From a virus, in IMG/VR virus record IMGVR_UViG_3300045921_000312, positions 1-32,143 of that record: a DNA stretch of 32,143 nt; one strand, given 5' to 3'. Positions 1,021 to 31,409 of this stretch are shown one piece after another. A program made the translations under genes and the position numbers. Numbering within the stretch: the stretch's first letter is position 1; the number at the start of each line of letters is the position of its first letter. The notes below the pieces were generated by a model, which had not been told where the DNA came from, made no database searches, and was given only the letters and a program-made list of their open reading frames with translations.

Positions 1021-1920
1021 ATGGATCTGCTCGAAACAAGCCGGATTCTTCTAAGATCTGGGTTCTTGCCGCCGCACTTGGACAGCGAGGCCAAGGTGTT
1101 TGCTGTGATCACGATGGGGCGTGAGATAGGGATCGGGATGTGGCAAGCCATCAATGGCATCAATGTCATTAAGGGTAAGCCCACAATTTCGCCTCAGCTG
1201 ATGCTGGCTTTAATTTATCGATCGGGGCAGCTGGAAGACTTACAAGTCGTCTCGGATGACAATCGCGCGTCGGTTACGATGAAACGCCGTGGCATGTTCC
1301 CGCACACGGAAATCTTCACGCTGGATGATGCCATCCGCCTTGGCGTCGCCGGAAGAAACGACAATTACAAAAAGCAGCCCGCCGTGATGCTGAAATGGCG
1401 TGCAGTGTCGGCCGCCTGCCGCGTTGTGTTCCCAGATGTGATTATGGGCTTCTACACGCCTGAGGAAATGGGGGCAGATGTGGTAGTAGATGCTGATGGC
1501 GATATGCGCTTAATGCCACCGACATCATCAGAAGCGCAACCGCCCGATGAGGGCGATGCCCGACAGATTGTTTTGGCGCAGCGCGCCATGCTTTATCGTG
1601 GTGCGGGAGACCCTGCACCAGTTTGGCGCCTGCGCTGCCAAACGGAGCAAGGGAATTTGATTACCGTGATAATGAAATCGCGCAAAGACCTCAAGCGTCC
1701 CGAGTGGATTGAATTTGCCGATAGCTGGGACACTCAGCTTAAGCCGCCTGCCGCTGGCAGCGCGGACGTCAGTGAAGTCACAATCTTTGATGACACCCCG
1801 CTTGTGATTTGGGCAGAGCGCGAGCCTGGCCAAAAGGATTGGACATTTTTGTTTCCGGCGGGTCTTGAAGACGAAGGGCTGCCGGACTGGATCAAACAAC
1901 ACATGAATGGAGACTCATAA
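1021..1920 (+). CDS. RecT-like single-strand annealing protein
   Basis: The 299-aa product resembles the phage RecT group, which coats single-stranded DNA and anneals complementary strands during recombination and replication. What I see: an N-terminal block with GREIGIGMWQA, then INVIKGKPTISPQLMLALI, which matches the usual 'G.ELG.. A..gI.vi.GKP..s..lm' pattern. In the middle is NYKKQPAVMLKWRAVSAACR followed by FPDVIMGFYTPEEMGADV, the typical RecT core ending with the YTPEE signature. The last 130 residues are not conserved in that family as I know it. A GAGGGG site precedes the ATG by 3-4 nt. The stop codon overlaps the next ATG (TAATG), implying translational coupling. No partner exonuclease is visible in the window. 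Confidence 0.72.
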   Translation: MDLLETSRILLRSGFLPPHLDSEAKVFAVITMGREIGIGMWQAINGINVIKGKPTISPQLMLALIYRSGQLEDLQVVSDDNRASVTMKRRGMFPHTEIFTLDDAIRLGVAGRNDNYKKQPAVMLKWRAVSAACRVVFPDVIMGFYTPEEMGADVVVDADGDMRLMPPTSSEAQPPDEGDARQIVLAQRAMLYRGAGDPAPVWRLRCQTEQGNLITVIMKSRKDLKRPEWIEFADSWDTQLKPPAAGSADVSEVTIFDDTPLVIWAEREPGQKDWTFLFPAGLEDEGLPDWIKQHMNGDS

Positions 1921-3688: not shown

Positions 3689-4918
3689 ATGCCTGAAAAA
3701 AGACATCTCGGAGTCAGCGTCCTAGAAGCCGCACAGCAGCGCATTGCTTGGACGTTTGACACCTTCCCACGCATCTATCTTAGCTTTAGTGGTGGCAAGG
3801 ACAGCACGGTCATGATGCACTTAGTCATGGCTGAGGCAATAAAGCGCAACCGCAAAATAGGTGTACTATTGGTTGACCTAGAAGGCCAGTACCGCCTAAC
3901 CATCGAACACGCCCAGCGCATGTTTGACCTATACGCCGATTGGATTGAGCCATACTGGGTATGCCTGCCGATTGCGCTGCGAAACGCCGTCAGTCAGTTT
4001 GAGCCAAAATGGTGTGCTTGGCAACCCGACCGAATAGATGATTGGATACGCCAGCCGCCGCCGATGGGGATCACCGACCTAAAGCATTTTCCGTTTTATC
4101 GCTACCGCGCTGAATGCCCGATGGAGTTCGAGGAGTTTGTTCCTGCATTCGGAGACTGGTATTCGCAAGACAAACTAACCGCCTGTTTTGTTGGCATTCG
4201 TACCGCCGAAAGCCTGAACCGCTGGCGAACGATTGCCGGTCACGGCATGAAGTTTGAAGGTCGCAAGCACACCAACCACGTCATGAAATCAGTTTGGAAC
4301 GTGTACCCCATCTATGACTGGTCTACCGAAGACATCTGGACATATCACGGCAAAACCAATCTGCCCTACAACGCGCTTTACGACCGGATGCACCAAGCAG
4401 GCTTGACGCTGCACCAAATGCGGATTTGCCAGCCGTATGGCGACGACCAGCGCAAGGGGCTATGGCTGTTTCACCTGATCGAGCCAGAAACATGGGCGCG
4501 GGTAGTGGCGCGGGTATCCGGCGCAAACCAAGGCGCACTATACGCCAATGAGCGTGGGAACGTAATGGGCGTTGGCAAGGTTAGCAAGCCGTCCGGCCTG
4601 ACGTGGGAACAATTTGCGGACAAGCTACTAGAGTCCATGCCGACCAAAACAGCGGAGCATTTTAAGAACAAAATAGCGGTGTTTATTCGGTGGTATCACG
4701 AGCGCGGATACCCCGACGGGATACCGGACGCACACCCCTCGACCAAGCTGGGTGATGAATACCCGTCTTGGCAGCGCATTTGTAAGGTATTGCTCAGAAA
4801 CGATTACTGGGCGAAAGGCTTGGGGTTTGACCAGCAAAAGGGCAACGCCCACCAGAAGTACATCCAACTGATGAAGAAGCGGAGGAACACATGGGGCATT
4901 TATCCCTTATCGGAATAG
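3689..4918 (+). CDS. ibrA: IbrA-like PAPS-reductase-family protein (DUF3440)
   Basis: The 409-aa product has the PPi-loop SGGKDS at residues 34-39 of the adenine-nucleotide alpha hydrolase/PAPS reductase fold and GIRTAES at 169-175. The long C-terminal half includes HQMRICQPYGDDQRKGLWLFH, the layout of IbrA (PAPS_reduct plus DUF3440). Such enzymes activate a substrate by adenylation with ATP. The substrate of IbrA is not known, and it lacks the C-terminal Cys motif of true PAPS reductase. A strong GAGGAGG precedes the ATG. The next gene, an IbrB-like ParB-fold protein, overlaps the 3' end by 28 nt. In E. coli, IbrA and IbrB together activate eib genes; in phages the pair is common and its role unclear. 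A second SGGKDS protein lies in the cas operon. Confidence 0.85.
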   Translation: MPEKRHLGVSVLEAAQQRIAWTFDTFPRIYLSFSGGKDSTVMMHLVMAEAIKRNRKIGVLLVDLEGQYRLTIEHAQRMFDLYADWIEPYWVCLPIALRNAVSQFEPKWCAWQPDRIDDWIRQPPPMGITDLKHFPFYRYRAECPMEFEEFVPAFGDWYSQDKLTACFVGIRTAESLNRWRTIAGHGMKFEGRKHTNHVMKSVWNVYPIYDWSTEDIWTYHGKTNLPYNALYDRMHQAGLTLHQMRICQPYGDDQRKGLWLFHLIEPETWARVVARVSGANQGALYANERGNVMGVGKVSKPSGLTWEQFADKLLESMPTKTAEHFKNKIAVFIRWYHERGYPDGIPDAHPSTKLGDEYPSWQRICKVLLRNDYWAKGLGFDQQKGNAHQKYIQLMKKRRNTWGIYPLSE

Positions 4919-5541
4919 GGATTGTTAAGCAGGCTAATGCATTGGCCGAACAGTTGGCCGATTTACCTGAAGATGAACGCATTGAGGTGCTGAATCAAAT
5001 TCGCGCCGCGCTACACGCTGTCAGCCCAATGGCAGATCACCCAGTGGATTTTGTGCGCTGGGTGCGCTTGGATGATGTAGTCTCAAACGATTACAATCCC
5101 AATGTAGTAGCGCCGCCTGAGATGAAGTTATTGGCCCGCTCGATTGAGGCTGACGGCTATACCATGCCGGTAGTTACATATGCTGATGCTGACCGGCGGG
5201 AAGTGGTGGATGGCTTTCACCGCACCCGTGTAGCGCGAGAGAATAAACGCATTAACGCATCCGTCAAAGGCTATCTACCCGTTACCACGATTCGCGCACA
5301 GCAAACCGATAAAGCCGACCGCATGGCCTCAACCATACGGCACAACCGCGCCCGTGGTCAACACGTAGTAAGCAACATGAGCGAGATTGTGTTGGAACTC
5401 TCCCGTCGGAACTGGTCAAACGATAAAATTGGCCGTGAACTTGGCATGGAGCCGGACGAGGTGCTGCGCTTGAAGCAGGTCAGCGGATTAGCCGAAATGT
5501 TCGCTGACCGTGAGTTTAGTCAAGCGTGGGAAATCGAGTAA
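4891..5541 (+). CDS. ibrB: IbrB-like ParB/sulfiredoxin-fold protein
   Basis: The 216-aa protein starts at an ATG with GGAGGA 4-5 nt upstream, inside the end of ibrA, so the two are translationally coupled. It has the ParB N-terminal-domain pattern: NDYNPNVV, LLARSIEADGYTMPVV, then VVDGFHR with the GFHR at residues 108-111. This is followed by IRHNRARGQHVVSNMSEIV and a helix-turn-helix-like segment (WSNDKIGRELGMEPDEVLRLKQ). The order and wording match IbrB closely. The ParB fold here is thought to bind DNA and/or nucleotides. With IbrA it likely acts as one functional unit, possibly transcriptional. Confidence 0.85.
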   Translation: MGHLSLIGIGIVKQANALAEQLADLPEDERIEVLNQIRAALHAVSPMADHPVDFVRWVRLDDVVSNDYNPNVVAPPEMKLLARSIEADGYTMPVVTYADADRREVVDGFHRTRVARENKRINASVKGYLPVTTIRAQQTDKADRMASTIRHNRARGQHVVSNMSEIVLELSRRNWSNDKIGRELGMEPDEVLRLKQVSGLAEMFADREFSQAWEIE

Positions 5542-5833: not shown

Positions 5834-6325
5834 GTGCCTAAAGGCCCACGCAACCAACAATCTCATCTTGAGGCTGTCGAGCGCCAGCGCATGGCCTTAG
5901 AATTGCGCAAATCGGGTATGAGCATACGAGGCATAGCCCAATCTATTGGTGTGTCGCCTGCGTCTGCGCATAAGTATCTCAAAAGCGCACTCGTTGACCT
6001 TGCGAATGAACAGAGGGCTTCTGCTGCCGAATTGCGTGCTTTAGAAGACGAACGCCTTGACCGCCTGTTGATGGCGTGGTTTCCCTTGGCAATAGGGGGT
6101 GAAAACCGCGCGCCTGACCCAGCCGCAGCAGACCGCGTGCTGCGCATCATGCATCGACGGGCAGCTATGCACGGACTTGATGCGCCAGCAAAGGTGCAGG
6201 CGGAATTTTCTTGGCAGGATGAAGCCAAGCGTTTAGGCTTGCAACCCAATGATTTGCTGGCTGCTGTGTCGCAGGCCATTGCAGAACGCTTAAGCAGTGA
6301 TGAGGCTGATGATGAACCTGCTTGA
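5834..6325 (+). CDS. Small terminase subunit (probable)
   Basis: I chose GTG 5834, which has GAGGGG 5-6 nt upstream and yields a 163-aa protein; the open frame upstream overlaps the promoter. The N-terminal half has a helix-turn-helix (MSIRGIAQSIGVSPASAHKYLKS) suited to recognising the packaging site. The second half, with AADRVLRIMHRRAAMHGLDAPAK, matches a pattern common in small-terminase-like phage proteins located before the large subunit. Small terminases form rings that bind phage DNA and hand it to the ATPase. The gene overlaps the large-terminase start. Identity rests on the helix-turn-helix plus gene order, so a regulatory DNA-binding protein remains an alternative. Confidence 0.7.
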   Translation: MPKGPRNQQSHLEAVERQRMALELRKSGMSIRGIAQSIGVSPASAHKYLKSALVDLANEQRASAAELRALEDERLDRLLMAWFPLAIGGENRAPDPAAADRVLRIMHRRAAMHGLDAPAKVQAEFSWQDEAKRLGLQPNDLLAAVSQAIAERLSSDEADDEPA

Positions 6326-7685
6326 GCGATTCAGTCCACAGGCTCAGGCGCAGCTTATTGGGCAGGCAATAAAGCGTGCTCAAAGGCTTGCCAGCTATCG
6401 AAGCGCTACCGTTCAAAAGGGAGAGTTTCGCGGGGGGAATTTGGCCGCACAAACCTGTGCTGACGCCGAAATCGTATTGATTGGCCCGGCAGGCACAGGC
6501 AAAACCTACGCCAATTTGGTAATGTTGAATCGTGAATTATGGAGACACCCTAATCTTAGGGTGCTGATTGTGCGACAGGTGCGGGCAGACCTTGCGCAAT
6601 CCGTACTTGTGACGTTTGAGCGAGACGTCCTAGGCTATGGCCATCCAATTTGTCAGGGGGCAACCCGTGAGCACCGGCAAGCTTATTATTATCCAAACGG
6701 CAGCATGATTGCACTGGCAGGCATGGACAGACCCGGGAAAGTGCTGTCAAGTGAATGGGATATTATCTATGTGCCAGAGGCAACTCAACTGTCTGAAAAC
6801 AGTTGGGAAATGTTGGGTATGCGTTTGGCCCGCGCAAGCAATTACCCCCACCCGCGTTTGATTGGAGATACAAACCCCGATAGCCCGCACCACTGGTTGA
6901 AGCGACGCATTGATGCCGGTTTGACCACGGGACTATATACACGCCATGAGGACAACCCTCTTTTCCATGACGGTACACGATGGACAGAACAAGGCGAACT
7001 ATACCTAAGCCGTCTCAATCGGCTGACAGGTGTGCGGCGAGCGCGATATCTTGAGGGTAAGTGGGCACAGGCCGATGGAATGGTGTATGATGGATGGGAT
7101 GATGCTGTACACGTGATTGACCCGTTTGAAATACCGGCGGACTGGTTGCGCTACCGCGCAATTGACTTCGGATACAGCAACCCTTTTACGTGTCAGTGGT
7201 GGGCGCAAGACCCTGATGGGCGGTTATATTTGTACCGAGAACTATACCGCACACAGCGATTGGTTGAAGACCATGCGGCGGACATTCAGCGCTTAAGCGC
7301 CCAAGAGCGCATTGTATTTACGGTCGCTGACCATGATGCGGAAGACCGCGCGACGCTGCACCGGCATGGCATCATCACTCGACCGGCCAACAAGGCCGTG
7401 CTGGCCGGCATACAAGCGGTGCAAGAGCGCCTTCGGGTGCAGGATGATGGCAAACCCCGATTGTTTGTTTTCCGGAACGCATTGGCAGAATTTGACCCTC
7501 TGCTGAATGAAGAGGGCAATAAACGCCCAACATGCCTTTTGCAAGAAATTAGTGGATATGTGTGGGCAAATAAAGCGACGCGGGAAGAGCCTGTCAAGCA
7601 AGATGACCATGGCCTAGACGCAATGAGATACATGGTCATGGCGCTGACAAATGGGCGACGGAAGTTAGCTTGGGCCATAGGATAA
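6312..7685 (+). CDS. terL: Terminase large subunit (packaging ATPase/nuclease)
   Basis: The 457-aa protein has both expected domains. ATPase: Walker A GPAGTGKT at residues 58-65 and a Walker B-like DIIYVPEA around residues 150-157, with Glu156 as the likely catalytic acid. Nuclease (RNase H fold): AIDFGYSNP with Asp285, VADHDAED with Asp340/Asp342, and DDHGLDAMRY with Asp431/Asp436. It drives DNA into the prohead and cuts the concatemer. The start is ambiguous among GTG 6297 and ATG 6300, 6309 and 6312. I chose 6312 because GAGG lies 6 nt upstream; all overlap the small terminase end. Confidence 0.95.
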   Translation: MNLLERFSPQAQAQLIGQAIKRAQRLASYRSATVQKGEFRGGNLAAQTCADAEIVLIGPAGTGKTYANLVMLNRELWRHPNLRVLIVRQVRADLAQSVLVTFERDVLGYGHPICQGATREHRQAYYYPNGSMIALAGMDRPGKVLSSEWDIIYVPEATQLSENSWEMLGMRLARASNYPHPRLIGDTNPDSPHHWLKRRIDAGLTTGLYTRHEDNPLFHDGTRWTEQGELYLSRLNRLTGVRRARYLEGKWAQADGMVYDGWDDAVHVIDPFEIPADWLRYRAIDFGYSNPFTCQWWAQDPDGRLYLYRELYRTQRLVEDHAADIQRLSAQERIVFTVADHDAEDRATLHRHGIITRPANKAVLAGIQAVQERLRVQDDGKPRLFVFRNALAEFDPLLNEEGNKRPTCLLQEISGYVWANKATREEPVKQDDHGLDAMRYMVMALTNGRRKLAWAIG

Positions 7686-7692: not shown

Positions 7693-10600
7693 ATGGGCAG
7701 AAAAAACAAGCGCAAGGCAAATGCGCAGCAGCGTGCGGTGGCACCGCTGCTGGGATGGGGGATGTCGGGAACGGATGCGGGAGACTTTGCCGCTTCGATG
7801 GTGGATCGCGGTGCAAGCCTTCCCCGCAGCGACTACGGTCTAGCGGTAGCGTTTTTGGTGTCGGTATGGGCGTTTCGATGTGTCTCGGTGCGTGCTCGCA
7901 TGGTTGGCTCAACGCCATGGCGCATTATCGATAAAGACACCCAAAAAGTGGTGTGCGACAGCAAAGACCCGAACCCGACCCCACTTATCGGCAAGGCCAT
8001 CCAAAACGTCCGCCTGAAGCAAGACGCCGGCTTGTTTGAACTGTGGGAATACAGCTTGTGCATCTGGGGAGAAACTTATCTTGAAAAGGTGCGCACTCCC
8101 AAACCATTTGAATTCCCAGCCGGCCTCCGGTGGCTAAACCCTGTAGATGTCAGCCCTATTGACATTGGGGGGCTGCTTGATGGGTTGATTTACCGTGGCG
8201 CAGGCGGATATACGGTGCAGTTGGCGCGCGATGATTTCATTATTTCGCGCATGTTCAACCCGATTGACCCCACCCGTGGGACGTCACCGATGGAAGTTGC
8301 GCTTCAGAGCATCACGATTGACGCCAATGCCAAAGCATTTATCCGCCAAAACTACCGAAACTTTTCGTACATTCCCCTTATCATCCGCCCCAAGGAAGGG
8401 TCAATTGACCTGAGCCAAGATGAGGTCAACGAGCTTGCACGAACCATCAGCACAAAATGGATGGGTGTGCAAAACGTTGGGCGGGTGCAGGTGCTTGGCA
8501 CACCCCTCGACGTGACAACGATTAACCCGACGAAACTCGATGACCAACTACATACCAGCGATTCGCTGGTGCGGGATATTTGCAGTGCATTTGGTGTGCC
8601 AAGGTCGTTGGCGGGCGACACAGACAGTGCACAATATAAAGCCAACGATGACGTGTTGGAGTGGTTTTATCGCGTCACGCTCAAACCAGAACTCGACATT
8701 ATCGAGGAGACCATGAACCTCGTGGTCATGCCGTTCTTTGATGAGACAGGGCAATATCTGTTTGAGTTTGACCACAGTCAGTACGAATTCATCACAGACG
8801 CTGACCAAACACGTCAAGAACTGCTGGCACAGCGTCTGAACACGACAGCCATCACGTTGTACGATTATCAAAAGCAGTCAGGCGTTGAAGCACCCCCACT
8901 TGAATTCCAAAACCTGTGGAAAGTAGAGGGGTTCAGTGGGTTTGTGCCCACTTCGGAATTGCCCAAGCTGTGGAAATATGGTGTGCTTGATGGCGTTGGT
9001 ACGGTGTTTAGCTCACAAGTGGCAGCAGCTGACACCCCCAGCAGCACCGAACCGGCGCAGCTCCCACAGAAAACGCCTATTGCCATTCCTGCGGTCGATG
9101 AGGTTGAAACCCGTGATGGTCGAGCGTTATGCATCGCGCTAGATTTAGCTAATCATCCCGACCTGATTGCTTTGCAACAGCATGTTAAACGTTTGATACC
9201 CGATGAGCACGTTCAGTGGAACTCCCCCGATTCTTTCCACATTACGCTTGTATACGCACCGACTGTTTCATCAGAGCAGTTTGTCGCCGCGCTTGATGCC
9301 GTGACGGCAATCCCTGTGCCAGACCTGTCGTTGCACGTTGGTAGCCTTGCCTCGTTCGATTCTGTTAGACAGTACGCGGTGCATTTTCGCATCCGCCGCA
9401 GTGTCGAACTGTTAAACTATCAGGCCGAGATTGCGGACACGTTGCGAGAAATGGGCATAGGCCTGTCGGCTTATAGCGTGCCTGAACAATATAAACCGCA
9501 CATCACCATGTGCTATGCGCCCGACAAAGTCCGCATCACCTACCACAGTCAATTACGGGTTTCTCCAGCAGGTCTCGTGGTTTGGGACGGAAACGAGAAA
9601 GAGGTATACCGTACAGGGTTAAACGATGACGCGGTGACAAATTCAAGTGGAGAAATTGCAGTGTTGCCGCAGAGCGACATTGACAACAACGCCCAAGCTG
9701 CCGCTGATGAGTTTGACCGGTTTGTGAAATTCACACGCAATCGCACTCATATCGAGCGCGCGTTTGTGTGGCAGCACGTCGATGAAGAGTTGTATCGCCA
9801 AATCGAGGCGGATATTGTCACGGACGACGCGGTCACAAGACACGCGGAAGTGATGCGCTGGCAAATGACGCTTCAGGCCCGTGCCGGCATTTTGCCAAAG
9901 AGGCTCCCCGACAAGGTTGATGCGCTGGTGAAAGTGTATCGCAGTGCGTGTATGCAACTGCTGGCACAATCCGAGCATCGCCGTGCTCACGGGTTACCGG
10001 ACATTGACGGGCTGTTGACTGATGCGATTGAAAGCGCGGTGCGCTCTTTTACGCTAAGTGTATTGAGTGCTCGGGCCTTAACAAAAGAGCGCGCACGGTT
10101 TGAGACCGAATTTTACCGCCTTGTGCGCCGTGCGCAGCTCGGACGCATTAACGAAAACACGTTGTCGGCAGACCTGTTTGCCTTTATCACACGCTTCTGT
10201 TTTGCGGTCATGGTAGACGGGTACAGCGACGGCGGTGTTCCAGACCATGAATTGACCCCGAGAGACCTTGATTGGTTGGATGCACACATTGAGCAGCAGC
10301 GCCCTTATGTGACACAGTTTGCGGCGGAGATTTTTGCTGCAGGCGAAGATGAGGCACTCAGCAGCAAACTAGTCAACGACCGTGCTAAATTGTGGTGGAA
10401 CAAGTCAATTATGCCGGCGTACAATGAAGGTTTGGCGCGTGCTGCCGCAGACATGATGGCCACGTTCGTACAAGGGCGCACACAAGAAAAATGCCGAGAT
10501 TGTGTGCAGCTCAACAACCGTACTTACCGGTTTAGTGAGTGGTTTGCGTATTTCGGCCGGCAGCTTGTACCCTGTGAGTTGACCGAATGCCAAGGGTGGA

Positions 10601-10764
10601 ACTGCCAATGCAGCATCGTTCCGACGCCCAACAAACGTCGCACCGCGGGACGCATCCCGCGGTTGTACGGCCCTAAACGGTCGGTGCTGCAATTTGAGAA
10701 TGACGCTGTATCGCAATTTCAGGGGTACAATCAGGTGATAGAAAAGGGTGTGGGGAATGGATAA
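7693..10764 (+). CDS. Portal protein fused to 2H phosphoesterase and MuF-type domains
   Basis: One uninterrupted 1023-aa frame holds three parts. Residues 1-440 or so are an HK97-type portal, the dodecameric DNA gate of the head (LVSVWAFRCVSVRARMVGSTPW near the start; AFGVPRSLAGD in the middle). Residues 476-640 or so carry two HxT motifs, FHITLVYAP (His516) and KPHITMCYAP (His603), the signature of 2H phosphoesterases, which cleave 2',3'- or 3',5'-cyclic or oligonucleotide phosphodiesters. Residues 670-1000 or so look like a MuF head-morphogenesis domain, ending in Cys934, Cys937, Cys961, Cys966, Cys971 and Cys973 (KCRDC; CELTECQGWNCQC). Portal-MuF fusions are known; the embedded 2H domain is unusual. 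The start is ATG 7693 with AAAGG upstream. Confidence 0.88.
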   Translation: MGRKNKRKANAQQRAVAPLLGWGMSGTDAGDFAASMVDRGASLPRSDYGLAVAFLVSVWAFRCVSVRARMVGSTPWRIIDKDTQKVVCDSKDPNPTPLIGKAIQNVRLKQDAGLFELWEYSLCIWGETYLEKVRTPKPFEFPAGLRWLNPVDVSPIDIGGLLDGLIYRGAGGYTVQLARDDFIISRMFNPIDPTRGTSPMEVALQSITIDANAKAFIRQNYRNFSYIPLIIRPKEGSIDLSQDEVNELARTISTKWMGVQNVGRVQVLGTPLDVTTINPTKLDDQLHTSDSLVRDICSAFGVPRSLAGDTDSAQYKANDDVLEWFYRVTLKPELDIIEETMNLVVMPFFDETGQYLFEFDHSQYEFITDADQTRQELLAQRLNTTAITLYDYQKQSGVEAPPLEFQNLWKVEGFSGFVPTSELPKLWKYGVLDGVGTVFSSQVAAADTPSSTEPAQLPQKTPIAIPAVDEVETRDGRALCIALDLANHPDLIALQQHVKRLIPDEHVQWNSPDSFHITLVYAPTVSSEQFVAALDAVTAIPVPDLSLHVGSLASFDSVRQYAVHFRIRRSVELLNYQAEIADTLREMGIGLSAYSVPEQYKPHITMCYAPDKVRITYHSQLRVSPAGLVVWDGNEKEVYRTGLNDDAVTNSSGEIAVLPQSDIDNNAQAAADEFDRFVKFTRNRTHIERAFVWQHVDEELYRQIEADIVTDDAVTRHAEVMRWQMTLQARAGILPKRLPDKVDALVKVYRSACMQLLAQSEHRRAHGLPDIDGLLTDAIESAVRSFTLSVLSARALTKERARFETEFYRLVRRAQLGRINENTLSADLFAFITRFCFAVMVDGYSDGGVPDHELTPRDLDWLDAHIEQQRPYVTQFAAEIFAAGEDEALSSKLVNDRAKLWWNKSIMPAYNEGLARAAADMMATFVQGRTQEKCRDCVQLNNRTYRFSEWFAYFGRQLVPCELTECQGWNCQCSIVPTPNKRRTAGRIPRLYGPKRSVLQFENDAVSQFQGYNQVIEKGVGNG

Positions 10765-13006
10765 GAAATTTGCGTTTGGTTCTACGGTTAGAGCGCTTGA
10801 TGATGGGATTGTCGAAGGATACCTAGTCCCCTTCACCACCGCAGCAGAGAAAGACTATTATGACACCTACTTTGACAAAGTCACTGATTATGACCTTGCC
10901 AACTGGCCAGCGGTAGGCCTAAATGTGTTGTATCAGCATGGCATGGATGAAACGATGGAGACGCGTACTATCGCAAAAGTGCGCGCTGCTCGCATTGACG
11001 ACGTTGGATTATGGGTCCAAGCACAGCTCGATATGCACGACGAATATCAGAAAGCAATCCACGCACTTGCAAAAAGAGGTATACTGGGGTGGTCAAGTGG
11101 CGCGCTGCCGGCATCTGTGCAAGTAGCCGATGACGGGCATATGGAACGGTGGTACATCATCGAGGCATCGATGACGCCCACTCCCGCTACGCCCAATGGG
11201 CGCACTAAAATCAACGTTGTTCGTTCTGCTGCCGATATTCGCAGCCTGCCGTCCCTGAAAGAGCTTCAGGCTAAAGAGGGCAACGGCGCAGGGAAGCGAG
11301 AGGCGGAAGTTCATCAAGACGCAAATCAAAGCGCCGCGGATGCGGCAAAGGAGAGGGAAATGTCTCCCGAAGAATTTAAGGATATGATCCGGCCCATTTT
11401 GGCCGAGCTGCTGGTTGAACTGGGCATTGTTTTGCCGGCAGCAGAGGTTGAGCAAACCGTAGATGAGTACGCTGAAGAATATGCCAAATCAGCTGAGGGT
11501 GAGGGAATCAAGCTGGATGAGGAAGAAATGCGCGCACTCATCCAGAAAATGGCCGAAGGGGTGATGCGCAAGCACACCGCCCGCAGCACGGCAATTAAAG
11601 CCGCAGCGCAGGCGGCCAAAGACAAAATTCGCCACGCCGCGCCTTCAATGGGCGTCAGCAAAACCGAAGGGATTGGGTCAGCGGCGGCAGAGCGGGGCGC
11701 GTCCGATCCTGCGCTCACTCAGCGCAGTGGCGGTTACATCAGCGTTGGCAGCGAGTATGATCATGTCAGCACGTCTGAATTGGCCTTGGCCGGTCTCATC
11801 ATGCGTGCACAGTTCAAGGCCACGGGCATCAGCATGGAGTACGCATCGGATGCGGACAAACGGATGCTGCGGGCACTGGCATCACGATTGCTGGAGGATA
11901 TGGCGGGCAAAGGCGGCGTGAGCATGTCGCCAGAAGCCGTACGCTCCATCCGCAAGGCGATGCCGTTCCGCGCCAATGAGCTGGACGCCACGAACCTTGC
12001 GGGCCAAGGTCTCGAATGGGTGGCAGTCGCATATGGCAGTGAAGTGTGGGAAAAGGTGCGGGAACAGCGCATCTACGAAGCGCTTATTGCCAAAGGTATG
12101 CAAACCAAGGAAGTGCCTTTGGGCGCAAAAGAGGCAGTGTTCTTCACTGAAGGTGCTGACCCCGTCCCGTACAACAGCCCTGAAGGGAACAGCGTGGACG
12201 CCACGGGGCGACCCGAAGTGGTAGTTGGCATTAACCCGTTTGGGACTGGGAAAGTGACTGCTACGCTGGCGTACACCAAGCTGGCAAGTTCGTTCACGAT
12301 GCGTCTTGGCGATAGCACGCCGGTCGATGTTGCGGCACAACTCGCATACCAGATGCGCGAGACCGCGATGGAGACCATCGAAAACCTCATCATGAACGGT
12401 GACACGGCCACTGCCGCAAATACGAACATCAACTTGATTGATGGCACACCAGCCACTGGCATCACCACCCCCTACTACATCGGTTTGGACGGTTTCCGCA
12501 AGTTTGCGCTGGTGACCAACACGGCACGGTCGGCTAACGCCGGCGGCACAATGTCGTCTGACCTGTTTAAGCAGGCAATGGGGCTGCTGCCGTCGAAAAT
12601 CCGCGCGCGCAAAGACCGCCTTGTATTCATCCTGAGTGCTGGCGCGGAACAAGCCGCGTTGAGCATCCCTGAATTGCTGACGCGGGATGTCAGCGCATTT
12701 GCCACACTGGAAAGCGGCGAAATTCGCCGCATCTGGGGCATCGACACACTAACTTCCGGTTTCGTGCTGCCGGCAAACACTGCCGGCAAAATCAGCTCAA
12801 ACTCGGCCAACAACACTCGCGGCACAATCATGCTGGTGTATGCGCCGTATTGGGGCTTGGGCTTCCAGCGCGCATTCAACCTCGAGGTAGTGCGTGACCC
12901 GCTGTCGGACACGAACACGTATGTTGGCGGGTTCAACATGTCATTGGTAGCGCGTTCCAACGACGCCCTGTCGCTGATTTACAACACCGCCTCGGAAGGC
13001 GTGTAA
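10757..13006 (+). CDS. Prohead protease - scaffold - major capsid fusion
   Basis: The 749-aa polyprotein starts at ATG 10757, overlapping the portal stop by 8 nt. Residues 1-165 or so match HK97-type prohead proteases: VEGYLVPF, then LYQHGMD with His61, GWSSGA with Ser113/Ser114, and IIEASMTPTPATP with Glu136, a plausible His/Ser/Glu catalytic set. Residues 200-320 or so are highly charged and helical, like a scaffold or delta domain (MSPEEFKDM, DEYAEEYAKSAEG). Residues 330-749 look like an HK97-fold major capsid protein (GGYISVGSEYDHVSTSELALAG; C-terminal FNMSLVARSNDALS). The protease is expected to cut itself and the delta part away during maturation. An in-frame internal start at 11360 could make scaffold-capsid alone. 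Confidence 0.9.
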   Translation: MDKKFAFGSTVRALDDGIVEGYLVPFTTAAEKDYYDTYFDKVTDYDLANWPAVGLNVLYQHGMDETMETRTIAKVRAARIDDVGLWVQAQLDMHDEYQKAIHALAKRGILGWSSGALPASVQVADDGHMERWYIIEASMTPTPATPNGRTKINVVRSAADIRSLPSLKELQAKEGNGAGKREAEVHQDANQSAADAAKEREMSPEEFKDMIRPILAELLVELGIVLPAAEVEQTVDEYAEEYAKSAEGEGIKLDEEEMRALIQKMAEGVMRKHTARSTAIKAAAQAAKDKIRHAAPSMGVSKTEGIGSAAAERGASDPALTQRSGGYISVGSEYDHVSTSELALAGLIMRAQFKATGISMEYASDADKRMLRALASRLLEDMAGKGGVSMSPEAVRSIRKAMPFRANELDATNLAGQGLEWVAVAYGSEVWEKVREQRIYEALIAKGMQTKEVPLGAKEAVFFTEGADPVPYNSPEGNSVDATGRPEVVVGINPFGTGKVTATLAYTKLASSFTMRLGDSTPVDVAAQLAYQMRETAMETIENLIMNGDTATAANTNINLIDGTPATGITTPYYIGLDGFRKFALVTNTARSANAGGTMSSDLFKQAMGLLPSKIRARKDRLVFILSAGAEQAALSIPELLTRDVSAFATLESGEIRRIWGIDTLTSGFVLPANTAGKISSNSANNTRGTIMLVYAPYWGLGFQRAFNLEVVRDPLSDTNTYVGGFNMSLVARSNDALSLIYNTASEGV
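11349..11362 (+). promoter_or_regulatory. Internal ribosome binding site and in-frame ATG
   Basis: AGGAG at 11349-11353, six nt before an ATG at 11360-11362, lies in frame inside the protease-capsid gene, at the boundary between the protease and scaffold-like parts. It is stronger than the site at the gene's annotated start. Initiation here would give a 548-aa product without protease. Nested starts in capsid protease genes are known (lambda C/Nu3); use here is inferred. Confidence 0.45.
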
Positions 13007-26210: not shown

Positions 26211-26920
26211 TGAAACTGTCAGAAAAGCTGCTACTTGTTCTAAGGATGCAAAGCAGCAGCGGCAATCCCGATTGGAATACCATGATGTCCAGCTTGACGC
26301 CCACGCTGTGGTGGAAGCTAGACGAAGCGGGCGCACCATTTGCGTCGAGCGGTTCACAGTCGGGCAACCTGACTGTATTTTCTGGTTCAATCACGACGCA
26401 ACAAGGGTCACTTAACGACCCTTTGGCCGGCGTTGGCCTAAACAACACTGCCACTCCTGATGTGTTGGCGGCCAATGTAGGCACACAAGCAAACACGTGC
26501 ACCTTGGTTGCGCTGGTAAAGCCCCCTGTTGTGGCCAGCAACACCAATCTGATGAGCAGCGATGTCGGCTCATTATTTGCGCGCTTAATAGCCGACGGCA
26601 CTTTGTCAATGTATGATGATGTTGCGGGATTGACGGTGTCTAGTGCATCAGGAACATGGAAGGGGGGGGAATGGAACTTGGTTTTTTACCGGTTCAGCAC
26701 CACTACTGCGCCAAGCATTCTCGCAACATCGCAAACCGCTGGCGGGGTGGTATCTGTGGTTGCGACAGGCAGCACCCCGTTTGATTTGCGGCCTACAGGG
26801 TCTACGGCCTTTCGGGGATCGGAAAATGCCAACGAGTGCATTATTGGCGCTATGGCATTTATCCCATTTGCCGTGTCGCTGGAGCAGGCGCAAGCGCTGG
26901 CCGATACATTGATCTGGTAA
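26210..26920 (+). CDS. LamG/concanavalin A-like surface-binding protein
   Basis: The 236-aa protein overlaps the preceding stop by one base. It has the layout of LamG/ConA-like lectin domains: PTLWWKLDEAGAPF at the start of the domain, then SGSQSGNLTVFSG, a central CTLVALVKPP strand, GEWNLVFYRF, and a closing region with AMAFIPFAVSLEQAQALADTL. Such domains in phages bind sugars on hosts or decorate fibres. It is the last gene of the structural operon, and a terminator follows. Confidence 0.7.
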   Translation: MKLSEKLLLVLRMQSSSGNPDWNTMMSSLTPTLWWKLDEAGAPFASSGSQSGNLTVFSGSITTQQGSLNDPLAGVGLNNTATPDVLAANVGTQANTCTLVALVKPPVVASNTNLMSSDVGSLFARLIADGTLSMYDDVAGLTVSSASGTWKGGEWNLVFYRFSTTTAPSILATSQTAGGVVSVVATGSTPFDLRPTGSTAFRGSENANECIIGAMAFIPFAVSLEQAQALADTLIW

Positions 26921-26934
26921 AAGAGGGCAAATAA

Positions 26935-26967
26935 AAAGCGCCCCTGCCGATACAGCAGGGGCGCTTT
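26935..26967. terminator. Bidirectional terminator between tail and cas transcripts
   Basis: A perfect 13-bp stem (AAAGCGCCCCTGC with GCAGGGGCGCTTT) closes a CGATACA loop. Read on the minus strand it is followed by TTTTATTT, a strong tail that should end the cas/short-ORF transcripts. On the + strand the tail is only TTT, but it still closes the structural operon. The sharp boundary shows two separate transcription units meeting here. Confidence 0.85.
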
Positions 26968-26976
26968 AAGCACGGA

Positions 26977-27069
26977 TTACGCGGCGATGAACTCAACCAG
27001 CGCGCCAATCCCATCAAACTCGATGCCGGCATAGGCGACGGGGCAACCCACCCACGTCATGGTCATCAT
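26977..27069 (-). CDS. Very small ORF (30 aa) with its own promoter
   Basis: On the minus strand a 30-codon frame (MMTMTWVGCPVAYAGIEF..., ending LVEFIAA) begins directly after a GCACAGGG element that can act as a ribosome site, with ATG at 27069, 27066 or 27060. It has a promoter of the same layout as the gene at 2762. The peptide has a short hydrophobic centre. No homology recognised. The promoter is the reason to take it seriously; the alternative is a non-coding leader RNA ending at the terminator. Confidence 0.4.
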   Translation of the reverse strand: MMTMTWVGCPVAYAGIEFDGIGALVEFIAA

Positions 27070-27071
27070 CG

Positions 27072-27124
27072 CCCTGTGCGCCGCTCGATACTATAAATAC
27101 AGCACGGGGTGCTACTTCCGTCAA
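27072..27124 (-). promoter_or_regulatory. Promoter with embedded palindrome and GCACAGGG element
   Basis: On the minus strand: TTGACG (27124-27119), a 17-bp spacer, TGTATT (27101-27096), 16 nt, then GCACAGGG (27079-27072). The palindrome AGCAC-CCC-GTGCT occupies 27113-27101. Spacing is identical to that of the promoter at 2683-2735. It lies downstream of cysH, so it drives only the short ORF. Confidence 0.62.
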
Positions 27125-27147
27125 GCCCCCAATTCCTGAGGGGCAGA

Positions 27148-27903
27148 TTATCCTCGCATAACGGGATTGGCCTCAAGCATGGCGTTGTACTCTTCGGGAA
27201 ACGCTTCAGCTTCAATGTTCATCACGCCATAGCCCTCGACACGGATGGTTGTCAGGCCACCAACGCGAGCGTTCTTCAGGTCTACTCCGATTTCAATCAG
27301 ACGCGGGTAGCGCCCGTTAATGGGTAGCCCGTAATGAGCGGTGTATGCCCAGACATCTTTATACGTCCAGTTGGCGATGGGCGCGCATCGAACCATGTCG
27401 AATGTCTTGAGATAACGTGTACTCTTCTGTAAGGCATACATGCGCTTTGTGCTTTCGTCTTTTCTCATGCCAACAAAAAACCCATCAAAGTCTGAGATGG
27501 TTCGGTAGTCCAGCCACGCTGGCACTGTGTAATCAATCCGAACCGCTTGGTTCAGCACCGAGTGAACCCCGTATCGCCGAAAAAATTCAGGGTCGGTTGC
27601 CGATCGAACGCGAATGAGGCGCGTGCCCCACTCGCGTTCGATATAATCCAAGATGTCGTGCGTGTGGCGCGTCTCCCACTCATCTTCCCAGATTGCGGGC
27701 ACAGTCGCGCCTCCGTCCACCTGCCGCACAAGGTGCAGCATCAAAATGCTATCTTTGCCCCCGCTAAACGAAAGATAGGGGTTTCGGCACTGCGCAAGCA
27801 TCTCGGCAATTTCGCGCCGTGATTGGTCTGCCAATCGCTCGATATAGGCCTTGCGATTGGCATAATCCAACCGAAACAGCTTAAGGTGGGTTGCCCAATC
27901 CAT
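27148..27903 (-). CDS. cysH: CysH-like protein of type IV-B CRISPR-Cas
   Basis: The 251-aa protein starts at ATG 27903, overlapping the csf3 stop (TGATG); longer in-frame extensions lie inside csf3. It has the PPi loop SGGKDS (residues 47-52) and GMRKDES (145-151) of the PAPS-reductase/ATP-pyrophosphatase fold, then a region (ANWTYKDVWAYTAHYGLPIN) typical of this family. It lacks the C-terminal ECG(I/L)H motif of assimilatory PAPS reductases, so sulfate reduction is unlikely. A cysH-like gene is the hallmark companion of type IV-B cas operons; its role there is unknown. It is the last gene of the operon. Confidence 0.88.
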   Translation of the reverse strand: MDWATHLKLFRLDYANRKAYIERLADQSRREIAEMLAQCRNPYLSFSGGKDSILMLHLVRQVDGGATVPAIWEDEWETRHTHDILDYIEREWGTRLIRVRSATDPEFFRRYGVHSVLNQAVRIDYTVPAWLDYRTISDFDGFFVGMRKDESTKRMYALQKSTRYLKTFDMVRCAPIANWTYKDVWAYTAHYGLPINGRYPRLIEIGVDLKNARVGGLTTIRVEGYGVMNIEAEAFPEEYNAMLEANPVMRG

Positions 27904-28571
27904 CACGCTTTCACGCACATCCTGTAGTTGTTGTTGTCCCAATAGTTGGGGCGGATGGTGCGCCGCGTCACATCCGGCAACGGCGCGTTGGGGTAGGCGT
28001 CCGACCACCACGACAACGGGATAGTCCGCACGGGTGTGCCAGATGCCGACAAGATGCTTTCATCGGTCTGACACGGCTCGACATGCCATGCCGTGACCAC
28101 CCCAAACCCTTGTGAGCGTTTCTTGCCGATGGCCGAGCACTCCGCCAGCAATTCGGTAATCGCTGCCCCGTCGCCCATCACGCACCACTGCACCGAAGTA
28201 GCATGGCGCAAGCTGATGCTATAGTGATAAGGCTTGTACCGCCCCTCACTCATCTGAACCTTTTTGCTATCGGTGTATTGCTCAGCCTCAACCACGTCAA
28301 ATCGTTTATTCCAGTGGTCACGCTGAAATGCCACCTGCTCCGGCCACAATGCAAAGCTAGCGGCAAAGAACCAGTCTGCGCCTTCATTGACCACTTTCAA
28401 GGGTACGACTTCGGGATGCACTTCAGGCGCTTGCCCCGGCAGCTGCGCCGGCAACTCTCCGAATGCGCGCACATGACTCAGATACGCCAAAATCCCATCG
28501 ATAGGCGCGGCAGGGTCGCCTTGATATGGCGACCCCAACACAGCCGTAATCCGCAGCGGCTCATAGCTCAT
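27903..28571 (-). CDS. csf3: Csf3 (Cas5 family) of type IV-B CRISPR-Cas
   Basis: I chose ATG 28571 (MSYEPLRITAVLG), overlapping the end of csf2 by 11 nt; the further upstream codon would extend it into csf2. The 222-aa product has the Csf3 look: a strand start PLRITAVLGSP followed by PIDGILAYL. Near the end come VQWCVMGDGAAITELLAECSAIGKKRSQGFGVVTAWHVE, with the glycine-rich GKKRSQGFG loop of Cas5/RAMP proteins. Cas5 caps the 5' end of the guide RNA in effector complexes. Its stop overlaps the cysH start. Confidence 0.87.
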   Translation of the reverse strand: MSYEPLRITAVLGSPYQGDPAAPIDGILAYLSHVRAFGELPAQLPGQAPEVHPEVVPLKVVNEGADWFFAASFALWPEQVAFQRDHWNKRFDVVEAEQYTDSKKVQMSEGRYKPYHYSISLRHATSVQWCVMGDGAAITELLAECSAIGKKRSQGFGVVTAWHVEPCQTDESILSASGTPVRTIPLSWWSDAYPNAPLPDVTRRTIRPNYWDNNNYRMCVKA

Positions 28572-29454
28572 TGAGCACCTCGATGATGCTGGCGCGATTT
28601 TCGCGCAAATGCTGCTCATAAGCCGTCAATTCATCTTCATAAGCGCTGGCTTGAGGGCTGAGCACCACGCTATCACCATTGGGCAAATACAGCACCGTTT
28701 CCACCATGCCGTGGCCGACCGCGCCTTTGCCGCCAATTTTGGGATGCTCGCTCCACCGTTTCAGCGCAGCGCCCCACGCGCCCATCTCAATGGCCGTCAC
28801 GTAATGGGACAAGGCATACCACCAGTAGCAGCGCGTGCCCGCTACCATCGTTTCAACTTGATAGCGCATTTGCTGCGGCGCAGCATCTTTGTCCCGCGCT
28901 TCTACCACGTGGTATTCCAGCAGAACATCCTTGCCATCGTCCTTGCGCACATACGACTCTGATTGCATCAGGTCGTACATCGAAGGCAAATCATCCCCAA
29001 TCAGCGCGGGGCTTAAATTAATCAGGTGGCGTGTCTCGTTGGCGATGGGCAGCACAATGCCAACATTTAGCTTGCCGGCCATGATGGTAGACCCAACCGC
29101 AGCACCCCAAACCGACAGCATCGGGATGGCCTCACGCAAACGCCGTGCTGCGGCAAGGTCTGCTGACCCTGTGCCCGCCCCCTTCGACAACGACCCGCCC
29201 GAAAACAGTGTGTAAAACGCTGACAGACTTAGGCTTTGGTTTGGGAGTTCCAAGATGTCCAGCATGTGCGCAGCCGCGTGGTCACGCAACAGCCCGCGAA
29301 TGCCGTTGCCGGTAATGGTCGGGATGCTGCGGATGCTGCCGTCTGAAGCCACCATTTTTGTGCGGTGGAACACCGCCTCAGTGCCAGTGCTTTCGCCGAT
29401 GTGCGACACCGACGATTGCAGTGTAATCAAAGCGTGAACTTTGTGGATGAGCAT
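28561..29454 (-). CDS. csf2: Csf2 (Cas7 backbone) of type IV-B CRISPR-Cas
   Basis: I chose ATG 29454 (MLIHKVHALITLQSSVSHIG), preceded by GAGGAGGAG in the end of cas11; codons further upstream lie inside cas11. The 297-aa product has PTITGNGIRGLLRD (GNGIRG at residues 49-54), FSGGSL, LSVWGAAVGSTIMAGKLNVGIVLP and a C-terminal KGAVGHGMVE. These glycine-rich motifs are those of Csf2/Cas7 RAMP proteins. Cas7 subunits polymerise along the guide RNA. In the characterised mycobacterial IV-B complex Csf2 and Cas11 form filaments on RNA. Confidence 0.9.
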   Translation of the reverse strand: MLIHKVHALITLQSSVSHIGESTGTEAVFHRTKMVASDGSIRSIPTITGNGIRGLLRDHAAAHMLDILELPNQSLSLSAFYTLFSGGSLSKGAGTGSADLAAARRLREAIPMLSVWGAAVGSTIMAGKLNVGIVLPIANETRHLINLSPALIGDDLPSMYDLMQSESYVRKDDGKDVLLEYHVVEARDKDAAPQQMRYQVETMVAGTRCYWWYALSHYVTAIEMGAWGAALKRWSEHPKIGGKGAVGHGMVETVLYLPNGDSVVLSPQASAYEDELTAYEQHLRENRASIIEVLNEL

Positions 29455-29458
29455 AGGG

Positions 29459-29851
29459 CTACTCCTCCTCAAAATCGGTGTCAGCGGACAAGCTGGCATT
29501 GTATGCGCGCATTTCGGCAAGGCGCGCGCGCAACAATGCAATCAGATACGGGTAGTTGTCTCGGATGTTGTCGAGCACCAGCGCGGCGTGTTCAGGCCGC
29601 GTTGCCTTTTCGATATAATATTGGGGCAGCTCGCCGCCGGCAAGCACCATGCCGCTGAATTTTTTGCACACCTCAGCGATAAAGCGGGTAAGTGCACCAG
29701 TCTGCTGAGCAGCTGCGCTCACGCGGCTTTGAAAAATCCCCCAAATGTCCCGCGCATACTTGGTTTTCAGTTCGGGGTCAATCGACACCCAAAGCACATG
29801 CAGCACATCAACTGCATGGATGTCGTTCTCAGACACGTTCAGGTCGCTCAT
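29459..29851 (-). CDS. cas11: Cas11-like small subunit of type IV-B CRISPR-Cas
   Basis: The 130-aa protein is almost all alpha-helix by composition (DVLHVLWVSIDPELKTKYARDIWGIF; RFIAEVCKKF; ALVLDNIRDNYPYLIALLRARLAEMR) with an acidic tail. It starts in an ATGA overlap with the csf1 stop and is followed four bases later by the csf2 start. Small helical subunits between csf1 and csf2 are the Cas11 equivalents of subtype IV-B. Sequence is poorly conserved in this family, so the call relies on size, helicity and exact position. Confidence 0.78.
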   Translation of the reverse strand: MSDLNVSENDIHAVDVLHVLWVSIDPELKTKYARDIWGIFQSRVSAAAQQTGALTRFIAEVCKKFSGMVLAGGELPQYYIEKATRPEHAALVLDNIRDNYPYLIALLRARLAEMRAYNASLSADTDFEEE

Positions 29852-30555
29852 TCATCATCCTCTTTCCCATTGTCATGGTCTTGTGGTTTGGTTGTGAGAT
29901 ACAGCGCAAGGGCGAAGGTCAAGCTTCCGCGCTGGTTTCTGATTGCTGCTTCATGCAAGCGAAACACCTGCATGTCACTGTCAGGGTAAAAGCGATAATT
30001 ACCGGTCTCAATGCCCTCCTTCGTAAAGCCCGCATCGTACAGCGCTTGAATGCGTGCCTGTAGCGGTATGAATTCCGCGAGGTCAAGCTCAAAGCGCTGC
30101 TCTTCAAATTGCACCCATCCAACCGACTGGCCGGCAGGGTTGGCCTGAGCCTTAAATGCAAGATGCTTTTGCCCCGATTCCGACACAATGCATACCTCGG
30201 GCATGATGCCATCCAGTAGCGCGGCCAGCATGTCTGCTTTTTGCCCTTTGCTATAGACGCCCCATACCCCATCCTTCACAAGGTGAGAATAGGTGCGAAA
30301 CTTCTGGGGCTTGTCCTTCCCTGTTTTTGCTTGTACATCAGGGTTTGGTTGCGTCATCGTCCACGCACACGCACTGCACACCCCTGCCGACATGTCTCCT
30401 TGTGCTGCATTGAAGTCGTTGAAAGTGGGCTTGATGACCGCCTTGATGGGCGTCGAGGCATATGCTATCCCCCCGCATAAATAGCATTTCCCGTCTGCTG
30501 GATTATCCAGCGCGTACCCTGCTGCTTTATAGATAATTTGTGTTGCTGTGTCCAT
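29848..30555 (-). CDS. csf1: Csf1 (Cas8-like large subunit) of type IV-B CRISPR-Cas
   Basis: I chose ATG 30555 (MDTATQIIYKAAGY), with GGGGG 4 nt upstream. An in-frame GTG at 30621 adds 22 residues that fall in the presumed promoter. The 235-aa product has a zinc finger, Cys24-x2-Cys27 and Cys60-x2-Cys63 (CYLCGG...CSAC), with PTFNDFNAA between, as in Csf1. Later come YSHLVKDGVW, SGQKHLAFKAQAN and VGWVQFEEQRFELDLAEF, also Csf1-like. Csf1 is the reduced Cas8-type subunit of type IV complexes. It is the first gene of the five-gene operon. Confidence 0.88.
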   Translation of the reverse strand: MDTATQIIYKAAGYALDNPADGKCYLCGGIAYASTPIKAVIKPTFNDFNAAQGDMSAGVCSACAWTMTQPNPDVQAKTGKDKPQKFRTYSHLVKDGVWGVYSKGQKADMLAALLDGIMPEVCIVSESGQKHLAFKAQANPAGQSVGWVQFEEQRFELDLAEFIPLQARIQALYDAGFTKEGIETGNYRFYPDSDMQVFRLHEAAIRNQRGSLTFALALYLTTKPQDHDNGKEDDE

Positions 30556-30558
30556 AAT

Positions 30559-30612
30559 CCCCCGTGCTATTGTGTTTCTATACGATACCTGAAAAATCAA
30601 TATTTGTGCCAA
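30559..30612 (-). promoter_or_regulatory. Putative cas operon promoter and leader element
   Basis: Minus strand: TTGGCA (30612-30607), a 19-bp spacer, TATCGT (30587-30582), 14 nt, then GCACGGGG (30567-30560), which contains the csf1 ribosome site. On the + strand the same stretch reads CCCCGTGCTATTGT, matching 13 of 14 bases at 2698-2711. The promoter boxes are suboptimal; the element match is clear. Confidence 0.45.
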
Positions 30613-30651
30613 TGATTTCACAGTGTAGCTACACCAGCGGGGCTTTTCATT

Positions 30652-30718
30652 AAGCGGTTCCCCCGCTTGACGATATTATTAGGGTAACGCGGTGCACAGG
30701 GCACTGCTAACATAGGAG
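30652..30718 (+). promoter_or_regulatory. Leader of gene 30726: -10 box, inverted repeat, GCACAGGG
   Basis: AAGCGG-TTCCC-CCGCTT (30652-30668) lies before a TATTAT -10 box (30674-30679), then GCACAGGG (30694-30701) and AGGAG (30714-30718). From AGGGTAA to the AGGAG the leader aligns well with that of the gene at 2762, sharing TGCACAGGGCA and ACATAGGAGAAAA. A convincing -35 box is not seen. An alternative stem, AGCGGGG (30636-30642) with CCCCGCT (30661-30667), overlaps the inverted repeat. Confidence 0.5.
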
Positions 30719-30725
30719 AAAAGCT

Positions 30726-31016: not shown

Positions 31017-31072
31017 AAAAACGACAACGCCCCCTAGTTATTGGGTATCTGGAAATTCGTTGTGCTAGACCC

Positions 31073-31100: not shown

Positions 31101-31109
31101 TGTATCTAT

Positions 31110-31130: not shown

Positions 31131-31156
31131 GACAGAGAACACAAGGACAAAACACC

Positions 31157-31375: not shown

Positions 31376-31409
31376 ATAGTCGAAACAGGGGCAGACCATC
31401 GCCCTTGTC

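What the first reader, a model, noticed from the sequence alone, without database searches (positions are those of the whole stretch)
7693..10764. 2H phosphoesterase embedded between portal and MuF domains
The 1023-aa frame has two HxT motifs (His516 and His603) 87 residues apart, as in 2H phosphoesterases, placed after the portal body and before a Cys-rich MuF tail. 2H enzymes include Acb1, a phage enzyme that destroys cyclic-nucleotide signals of CBASS immunity. A virion-associated 2H domain could enter the cell with the DNA and act before any gene is expressed, or may process RNA ends. The fusion is not one I know as standard.
Basis: partly seen in the sequence, partly recalled or inferred. 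Interest (0 to 1): 0.76.

Follow-up and report, generated by a model that had tools for sequence, protein, structure and literature searches.

The report
Phage portal protein carrying 2H phosphoesterase
A phage DNA-entry (portal) protein carries, built into its middle, an apparently active enzyme domain of a type that cuts unusual RNA and nucleotide bonds; the same arrangement recurs in many environmental phages and was already described in outline in 2017 and 2022, so this is a solid new example rather than a new kind of thing.

Summary
ORF 7693-10764 (+) encodes 1023 aa: an HK97-type portal body (Pfam E 1.5e-31), a linker, a 2H phosphoesterase domain (aa ~474-640, HxT at 516 and 603), and a Cys-rich, probably MuF-like tail. 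AlphaFold2 of the 2H domain (pLDDT 90.8) matches E. coli LigT (Z 17.5), Usb1 (15.9) and, lower, anti-CBASS Acb1 (12.3). Across 28 diverse relatives both HxT motifs are invariant and, with Pro602, are the only invariant residues, so the domain is almost certainly active. At least 23 other IMG/VR contigs carry portal-2H in one ORF, some with a Pfam-grade MuF tail; in others the 2H sits on the prohead protease instead: a mobile head-gene cassette. Cultured phages (Pam3, Rhizobium, Gordonia, Arthrobacter) carry comparable fusions. No RNA ligase was found in 17 records, and LigT Arg130 is Tyr here, as in T4 Acb1; both weakly argue against RNA repair. The fusion class and the 'injected, counters nucleotide immunity' hypothesis were published in PMC5512222 and PMC9503650. 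Substrate, virion incorporation and injection are untested here. Verdict: real, interpretation plausible, new member of a known kind.

The parts
7693..10764 (+). Portal-2H-MuF-like fusion gene, 1023 aa
   Evidence: Translation without internal stops; one ORF, also conserved as one ORF in relatives
7870..8850 (+). Portal body, aa 60-386 (HK97/Phage_portal type)
   Evidence: PF04860 E 1.5e-31, 110.2 bits vs cut-off 39.1; phrog_2662 1.2e-32
9010..9108 (+). Low-confidence Ala/Pro/Thr-rich linker between portal and 2H domain, aa ~440-472
   Evidence: pLDDT below 50 in the full-length model for aa 424-475; length and sequence vary among relatives
9112..9612 (+). 2H phosphoesterase domain, aa ~474-640
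   Evidence: LigT_PEase 9.2e-9, 2_5_RNA_ligase2 3.4e-7; TIGR02258 2.8e-9; AlphaFold2 pLDDT 90.8; LigT Z 17.5; range 474-645 in full-length model
9238..9246 (+). First catalytic motif His516-Ile-Thr518
   Evidence: Invariant in 28 of 28 relatives
9499..9507 (+). Second catalytic motif His603-Ile-Thr605, preceded by invariant Pro602
   Evidence: Invariant in 28 of 28 relatives
9514..9516 (+). Tyr608 (His603+5), the position of phosphate-binding Arg130 in E. coli LigT
   Evidence: Tyr in 27 of 28 relatives and in T4 Acb1; Tyr in penguinpox cGAMP PDE and Arg in Deinococcus and Pyrococcus enzymes; Arg130 role in PMC5283653
9613..10761 (+). Helical C-terminal tail, aa 641-1023, probable MuF-like domain
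   Evidence: Conserved among relatives of the same architecture; same slot is Phage_Mu_F above cut-off in L022, L023, L027, L039; window tail itself not recognised
10492..10611 (+). Cys cluster aa 934-973 (CxxC ... CxGWxCxC) of the tail
   Evidence: Cys positions; pattern conserved in relatives
6297..7685 (+). Upstream neighbour: terminase large subunit
   Evidence: phrog_2 4.6e-34
10757..13006 (+). Downstream neighbour: prohead protease fused to capsid-like region; ATG 10757 overlaps the stop of the fusion gene (ATGGATAA)
   Evidence: Peptidase_S78 22.1 bits vs 21; phrog_80 head maturation protease and phrog_1623 virion structural; sequence

Best explanation
The gene encodes a structural portal subunit that carries an active LigT-fold 2H phosphoesterase and a probable MuF-like domain on its C-terminal side, which in known portals faces the inside of the head. 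Twelve copies would therefore be built into each virion (inference from portal biology). The 2H domain is a payload cassette that moves among head-assembly genes, and its most likely job is anti-defence: metal-free cleavage of a 2'-5', 3'-5' or 2',3'-cyclic phosphoester in a host immune nucleotide signal (CBASS, CRISPR type III and similar) or in RNA, acting either after release by the neighbouring prohead protease and injection with the DNA, or in the cell during late infection before assembly. Shown: the fusion, the fold, invariant catalytic residues, mobility among head genes. Inferred: virion location. Not shown: substrate, cleavage, injection.
For: Fusion in one ORF here and in at least 23 other IMG/VR contigs. 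2H fold with high confidence and LigT Z 17.5. HxT, HxT and Pro602 are the only invariant residues of 28 sequences that fall to 22% identity to the window's domain. 2H is the most conserved part of the protein in most pairs (window vs L006: 47% against 25% portal and 27% tail) and under the strongest purifying selection in the two pairs close enough to compare (dN/dS 0.04 vs 0.11 portal and 0.09 tail for L013/L019; 0.06 vs 0.12 portal for L002/L003). L017 and L031 have a portal-tail fusion without 2H and carry the 2H on the protease gene next door; L016 likewise on a protease-capsid protein, so the domain is a cassette tied to head genes. Cultured phages show the same habit. No RNA ligase or RtcB in 17 records. 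Tyr at the LigT Arg130 position, as in T4 Acb1 and penguinpox cGAMP PDE. The head-packaging and anti-signalling proposal is published.
Against: No substrate evidence. Closest structures are LigT and Usb1, RNA-end enzymes, not Acb1. Acb1 Pfam score is below cut-off. A domain covalently attached to the portal should stay in the virion unless cleaved, and no cleavage site was identified. Most records are fragments, so missing RNA ligases are weak evidence. The Tyr608 correlation rests on a handful of enzymes and is not known to set specificity.
Confidence: 0.5

Rival explanations
1. RNA-end enzyme: the domain opens 2',3'-cyclic phosphates or trims RNA (ThpR/LigT or Usb1-like), either healing tRNAs cut by host anticodon nucleases or attacking host RNA.
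For: Best structural matches are E. coli LigT (Z 17.5) and human Usb1 (Z 15.9); TIGR02258 RNA 2',3'-cyclic phosphodiesterase E 2.8e-9. RNase action was one of the two proposals of PMC5512222.
Against: TIGR02258 score 37.1 bits is far below its equivalog cut-off 65.7; LigT Arg130 is Tyr; no RNA_ligase or RtcB gene in 17 records with working controls, and PMC5512222 says 2H domains of this class were never seen with RNA ligases. It is not clear why a repair enzyme should ride on head proteins.
Confidence: 0.27
2. Late-acting rather than injected: newly made portal protomers, abundant in the cytoplasm late in infection, act as the anti-signalling enzyme there, and the fusion only guarantees stoichiometric late expression.
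For: The domain is nearly always on a late head gene and this route needs no cleavage step.
Against: Late expression could be had from a separate gene, as with T4 Acb1; repeated fusion specifically to portal, MuF and protease suggests that location matters.
Confidence: 0.15
3. Structural role only: a 2H fold co-opted as a spacer or decoration of the portal vertex, without catalysis.
For: Pam3-type portals, one of them a deposited virion structure, have a related C-terminal region in which the second motif is HxS in Pam3 and HxT in others.
Against: Catalytic tetrad invariant in 28 of 28 while everything else varies; related phages do without the domain in the portal.
Confidence: 0.05
4. Annotation artefact: chance HxT pair in a long linker.
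For: 13.5% of shuffles show such a pair.
Against: Pfam, NCBIfam, structure and 28-sequence conservation all agree.
Confidence: 0.01

Closest known systems
2H domains fused to MuF or portal domains in polyvalent/virion-delivered proteins (Iyer et al. 2017, PMC5512222; PMC9503650, 2022)
   Same: Same enzyme superfamily, same carriers, same proposed logic (packaged, injected, RNase or counter to nucleotide signalling)
   Different: Here the 2H lies inside the chain between portal and tail, in an environmental lineage; whether their figure shows this exact order could not be read (figures not held)
Pseudanabaena phage Pam3 portal (PDB 8hds) and its relatives (43 phage records in all)
   Same: Portal with a 2H-like region containing HxT...HxS/T
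   Different: C-terminal, Acb1-like rather than LigT-like; followed by a separate minor capsid gene; Pam3 second motif is HxS; link to Acb1 is weak by sequence (E 0.063)
Arthrobacter phages Salgado/Kovu gp18/gp20 and Gordonia phages Rofo, Paries, MelBins
   Same: 2H domain on a head-module protein near a MuF gene
   Different: Carrier is the prohead protease (XkdF type in Arthrobacter) or a long head protein, not the portal
Microbacterium phages of clusters EA3, EA5, EA8, EB (PMC7302621)
   Same: Portal and MuF-like functions fused in one gene
   Different: No 2H reported between them; other phages of that set fuse MuF to a VIP2 domain instead
E. coli LigT/ThpR
   Same: Fold (Z 17.5 over 162 residues) and HxT/HxT tetrad
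   Different: Arg130 replaced by Tyr; stand-alone cellular enzyme; TIGR02258 cut-off not reached
T4/FBB1 Acb1 (anti-CBASS)
   Same: 2H fold (Z 12.3), HxT/HxT, PHITxxY second motif
   Different: Smaller, stand-alone, lower structural similarity, Pfam cut-off not reached

Membership tests
2H phosphoesterase superfamily | Two HxT/S motifs about 70-100 residues apart, conserved across relatives | tested here: met
   H516/T518 and H603/T605, 28 of 28 conserved
2H phosphoesterase superfamily | Bilobal LigT-like fold | tested here: met
   Model pLDDT 90.8; 5ldm Z 17.5, rmsd 2.9 over 162 residues
2H phosphoesterase superfamily | Both HxT motifs in one pocket | tested here: inconclusive
LigT/ThpR RNA 2',3'-cyclic phosphodiesterase (TIGR02258) | Equivalog score above 65.7 bits | tested here: not met
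   37.1 bits
LigT/ThpR RNA 2',3'-cyclic phosphodiesterase (TIGR02258) | Arg at second His +5 (Arg130 of E. coli LigT) | tested here: not met
   Tyr608; Tyr in 27 of 28 relatives
Acb1 (PF23474) | Pfam score above 27 bits | tested here: not met
   17.5 bits, only residues 131-153 of the excised domain aligned; best relative L015 21.8 bits
Acb1 (PF23474) | Aromatic base-stacking residues and C-terminal lid over the cyclic dinucleotide | not tested
   Needs superposed coordinates; lid and residues described in PMC9117128
Acb1 (PF23474) | Cleaves cyclic di/trinucleotides | not testable with these tools
   Biochemical assay
HK97-type portal protein (PF04860) | Curated score above 39.1 bits, next to large terminase | tested here: met
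   110.2 bits; TerL immediately upstream
MuF / Phage_Mu_F (PF04233) | Curated score above 29.6 bits | tested here: not met
   No hit for the window tail; 1 of 16 tail relatives at E 0.17; but L022, L023, L027, L039 pass in the same slot of the same architecture
Virion-delivered (polyvalent) effector | Enzymatic domain fused to portal or MuF | tested here: met
Virion-delivered (polyvalent) effector | Present in virion and transferred to the cell | not testable with these tools
   Needs virion mass spectrometry and injection assay

The most novel reading that the evidence does not exclude
A portal-borne 2H cassette, cut loose in the procapsid by the neighbouring prohead protease, is injected ahead of or with the DNA and removes immune nucleotide signals before any phage gene is expressed: a pre-loaded anti-CBASS or anti-type III CRISPR defence built from the packaging motor, with a LigT-like rather than Acb1-like enzyme.
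Probability: 0.2. Interest if true: 0.75.

Novelty: new member of a known kind. Interest (0 to 1): 0.42.

Why it matters
It turns a brief published remark (2H domains fused to MuF or portal) into a defined protein family with invariant catalytic residues, alternative carriers among head genes, and cultured phages in which the idea can be tested. If the enzyme acts at entry, it would be a defence suppressor that needs no gene expression, and would help explain how phages survive fast nucleotide-signalling immunity.

Tried and rejected
Chance motif: rejected by homology and conservation. Direct Acb1 membership: rejected on Pfam score, and LigT and Usb1 rank above it structurally. MuF identity of the window tail by profile: Pfam, PHROGs, solved structures and hhalign to known MuF (probability 31% whole tail, 45% C-terminal part) did not establish it; hhalign to the tails of L022/L023/L027/L021/L029 aligned only the 60-column segment just after the 2H. 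The full-length model is poor outside the 2H domain (mean pLDDT 52.6, pTM 0.37) and was not used for portal or tail folds. tblastn of the window 2H against cultured phages found nothing; distant members L015 and L017 had to be used as queries. Bacterial genome scans by peptide patterns found no relative, which does not prove absence. The PF09511 RNA-ligase search is void because its controls were silent. No substrate signature that separates LigT from Acb1 could be computed.

Full report
Observation. The frame 7693-10764 (+) is open for 1023 codons. Two HxT motifs lie at His516 and His603, 87 residues apart, exactly as reported. Because 13.5% of shuffled versions also contain two HxT/S motifs 60-110 residues apart, the motif pair alone proves little. 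Profile searches settle it: the portal body at aa 60-386 scores 110 bits against PF04860, and the excised domain scores above the curated cut-offs of LigT_PEase (35.8 vs 23.3) and 2_5_RNA_ligase2 (30.9 vs 27), with Acb1 below its cut-off (17.5 vs 27). NCBIfam gives TIGR02258, RNA 2',3'-cyclic phosphodiesterase, at 2.8e-9 but below the equivalog cut-off.

Fold. AlphaFold2 on the domain with 28 sequences gives pLDDT 90.8 and pTM 0.86. Foldseek and VIA-align put E. coli LigT and its close relatives first (5ldm Z 17.5, 162 residues, rmsd 2.9), then a Thermus homologue and human Usb1 (15.9), AKAP18, rotavirus VP3 and MHV ns2 phosphodiesterases, then FBB1 Acb1 (12.3) and penguinpox cGAMP PDE (10.3). 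The domain within the full-length model gives a similar list, with aa 474-645 matched.

Active site. In 28 sequences, which fall to 22% identity to the window's domain, the only invariant residues are His516, Thr518, Pro602, His603 and Thr605. dN/dS is lower in the 2H domain (0.04, 0.06) than in the portal (0.11, 0.12) for the two pairs close enough to compare, and the 2H is the best-conserved part in most pairs. This is what an active enzyme looks like. Position His603+5, Arg130 in LigT where it binds the product phosphate (PMC5283653), is Tyr in 27 of 28 sequences and in T4 Acb1; the penguinpox cGAMP PDE has Tyr and the Deinococcus and Pyrococcus enzymes Arg. This is a suggestive correlation only.

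Architecture and relatives. Iterative scans of IMG/VR found 35 loci in the widest scan. At least 23 contigs besides the window have portal and 2H in one ORF (L007 only with the end of the portal, L011/L012 nearly identical), and the spacing of the catalytic His is 86-88 in the ten proteins measured. The tail behind the 2H is conserved in many of them. In the window it is not recognised as MuF by Pfam or PHROGs, but in L022, L023, L027 and L039 the same slot is Phage_Mu_F above its cut-off, so a portal-2H-MuF chain is formally established in relatives and probable here. There are informative exceptions: L017 (and its twin L018) and L031 have the portal-tail fusion without 2H, and the 2H sits at the N-terminus of the next head gene (protease-like in L017; protease plus capsid in L031); L016 has 2H-protease-capsid in one chain and a portal without 2H. 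The 2H is thus a cassette that moves between head genes.

Cultured phages. Arthrobacter phages Salgado and Kovu have 2H fused to an XkdF-type protease close to a MuF gene, Pfam-grade in Salgado; Gordonia phages MelBins and Paries carry it in head-module proteins of 918 and 871 aa. T4 Acb1 weakly matches the C-terminal part of the solved Pam3 portal (PDB 8hds, E 0.063), which has HVT and HIS motifs; 43 phage records share this portal region and the aligned examples keep the two motifs (HxT and HxS/T). Whether the Pam3 domain was modelled in the map was not checked.

Mechanism. Portal C-terminal regions lie inside the head (general knowledge), so twelve 2H copies per virion at the portal vertex are expected. 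To reach the cell they would have to be released, and the neighbouring gene, overlapping by ATGGATAA, is the prohead protease-capsid protein. Alternatively the enzyme acts late in the infected cell. RNA repair is less favoured: no RNA_ligase or RtcB in 17 records with working controls, although most records are fragments. Between immune nucleotides and RNA the evidence does not decide.

Known or new. PMC5512222 (2017) already reports fusions of 2H domains to MuF or portal, notes that they are not associated with RNA ligases, and proposes RNase action or degradation of immune nucleotides. PMC9503650 (2022) repeats this with explicit head packaging and injection. PMC7302621 reports portal-MuF fusions in Microbacterium phages. 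Viral LigT-like enzymes that hydrolyse cGAMP are established (PMC11410667; PMC9117128). The window protein is therefore a new, well-supported member of a known kind.

Noticed in passing
window 27148-30621 (-): A type IV CRISPR-like effector module in this phage: Csf2/Cas7 at 28561-29541 (PDB 7jhy Csf2, E 2.3e-24), Csf3/Cas5 at 27903-28619 (7xfz, E 1.2e-9; TIGR03116 4e-14), a weak Csf1 match at 30082-30546 (TIGR03114 6e-10), next to a CysH/PAPS-reductase gene at 27148-28011. csf genes beside cysH recall type IV-B (from memory). No CRISPR array was seen at 26500-32143. Scores are below the NCBIfam cut-offs.
   Followed up: partly
window 3689-5541 (+): A second PAPS-reductase with DUF3440 (3689-4918) followed by a ParB-like protein (4891-5541), an IbrA/IbrB-like pair, so the phage carries two PAPS-reductase genes.
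   Followed up: no
window 31426-32055: About 32 overlapping copies in a 15-nt repeat register, largely inside ORF 31106-31993 (-), which would be a 5-residue protein repeat.
   Followed up: no
window 1021-1920 (+): RecT-like single-strand annealing protein (phrog_561 5.5e-22).
   Followed up: no
L040:5660-8974 (+): A 1105-aa protein combining a Fic/DOC domain (E 1e-7) with a 2H region scoring toward Acb1 (E 0.00095).
   Followed up: no
L045 (T4) 1092-1911 (-): T4 acb1 (57B) is annotated 'RNA ligase' in the record and lies next to ipI, an internal virion protein. Many phage 2H genes bear the same label.
   Followed up: no
L051:313-2178 (+), PDB 8hds: The solved Pam3 portal appears to end in an Acb1-like region (HVT...HIS), shared by 43 phage records. 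I did not find this noted in the papers opened.
   Followed up: partly
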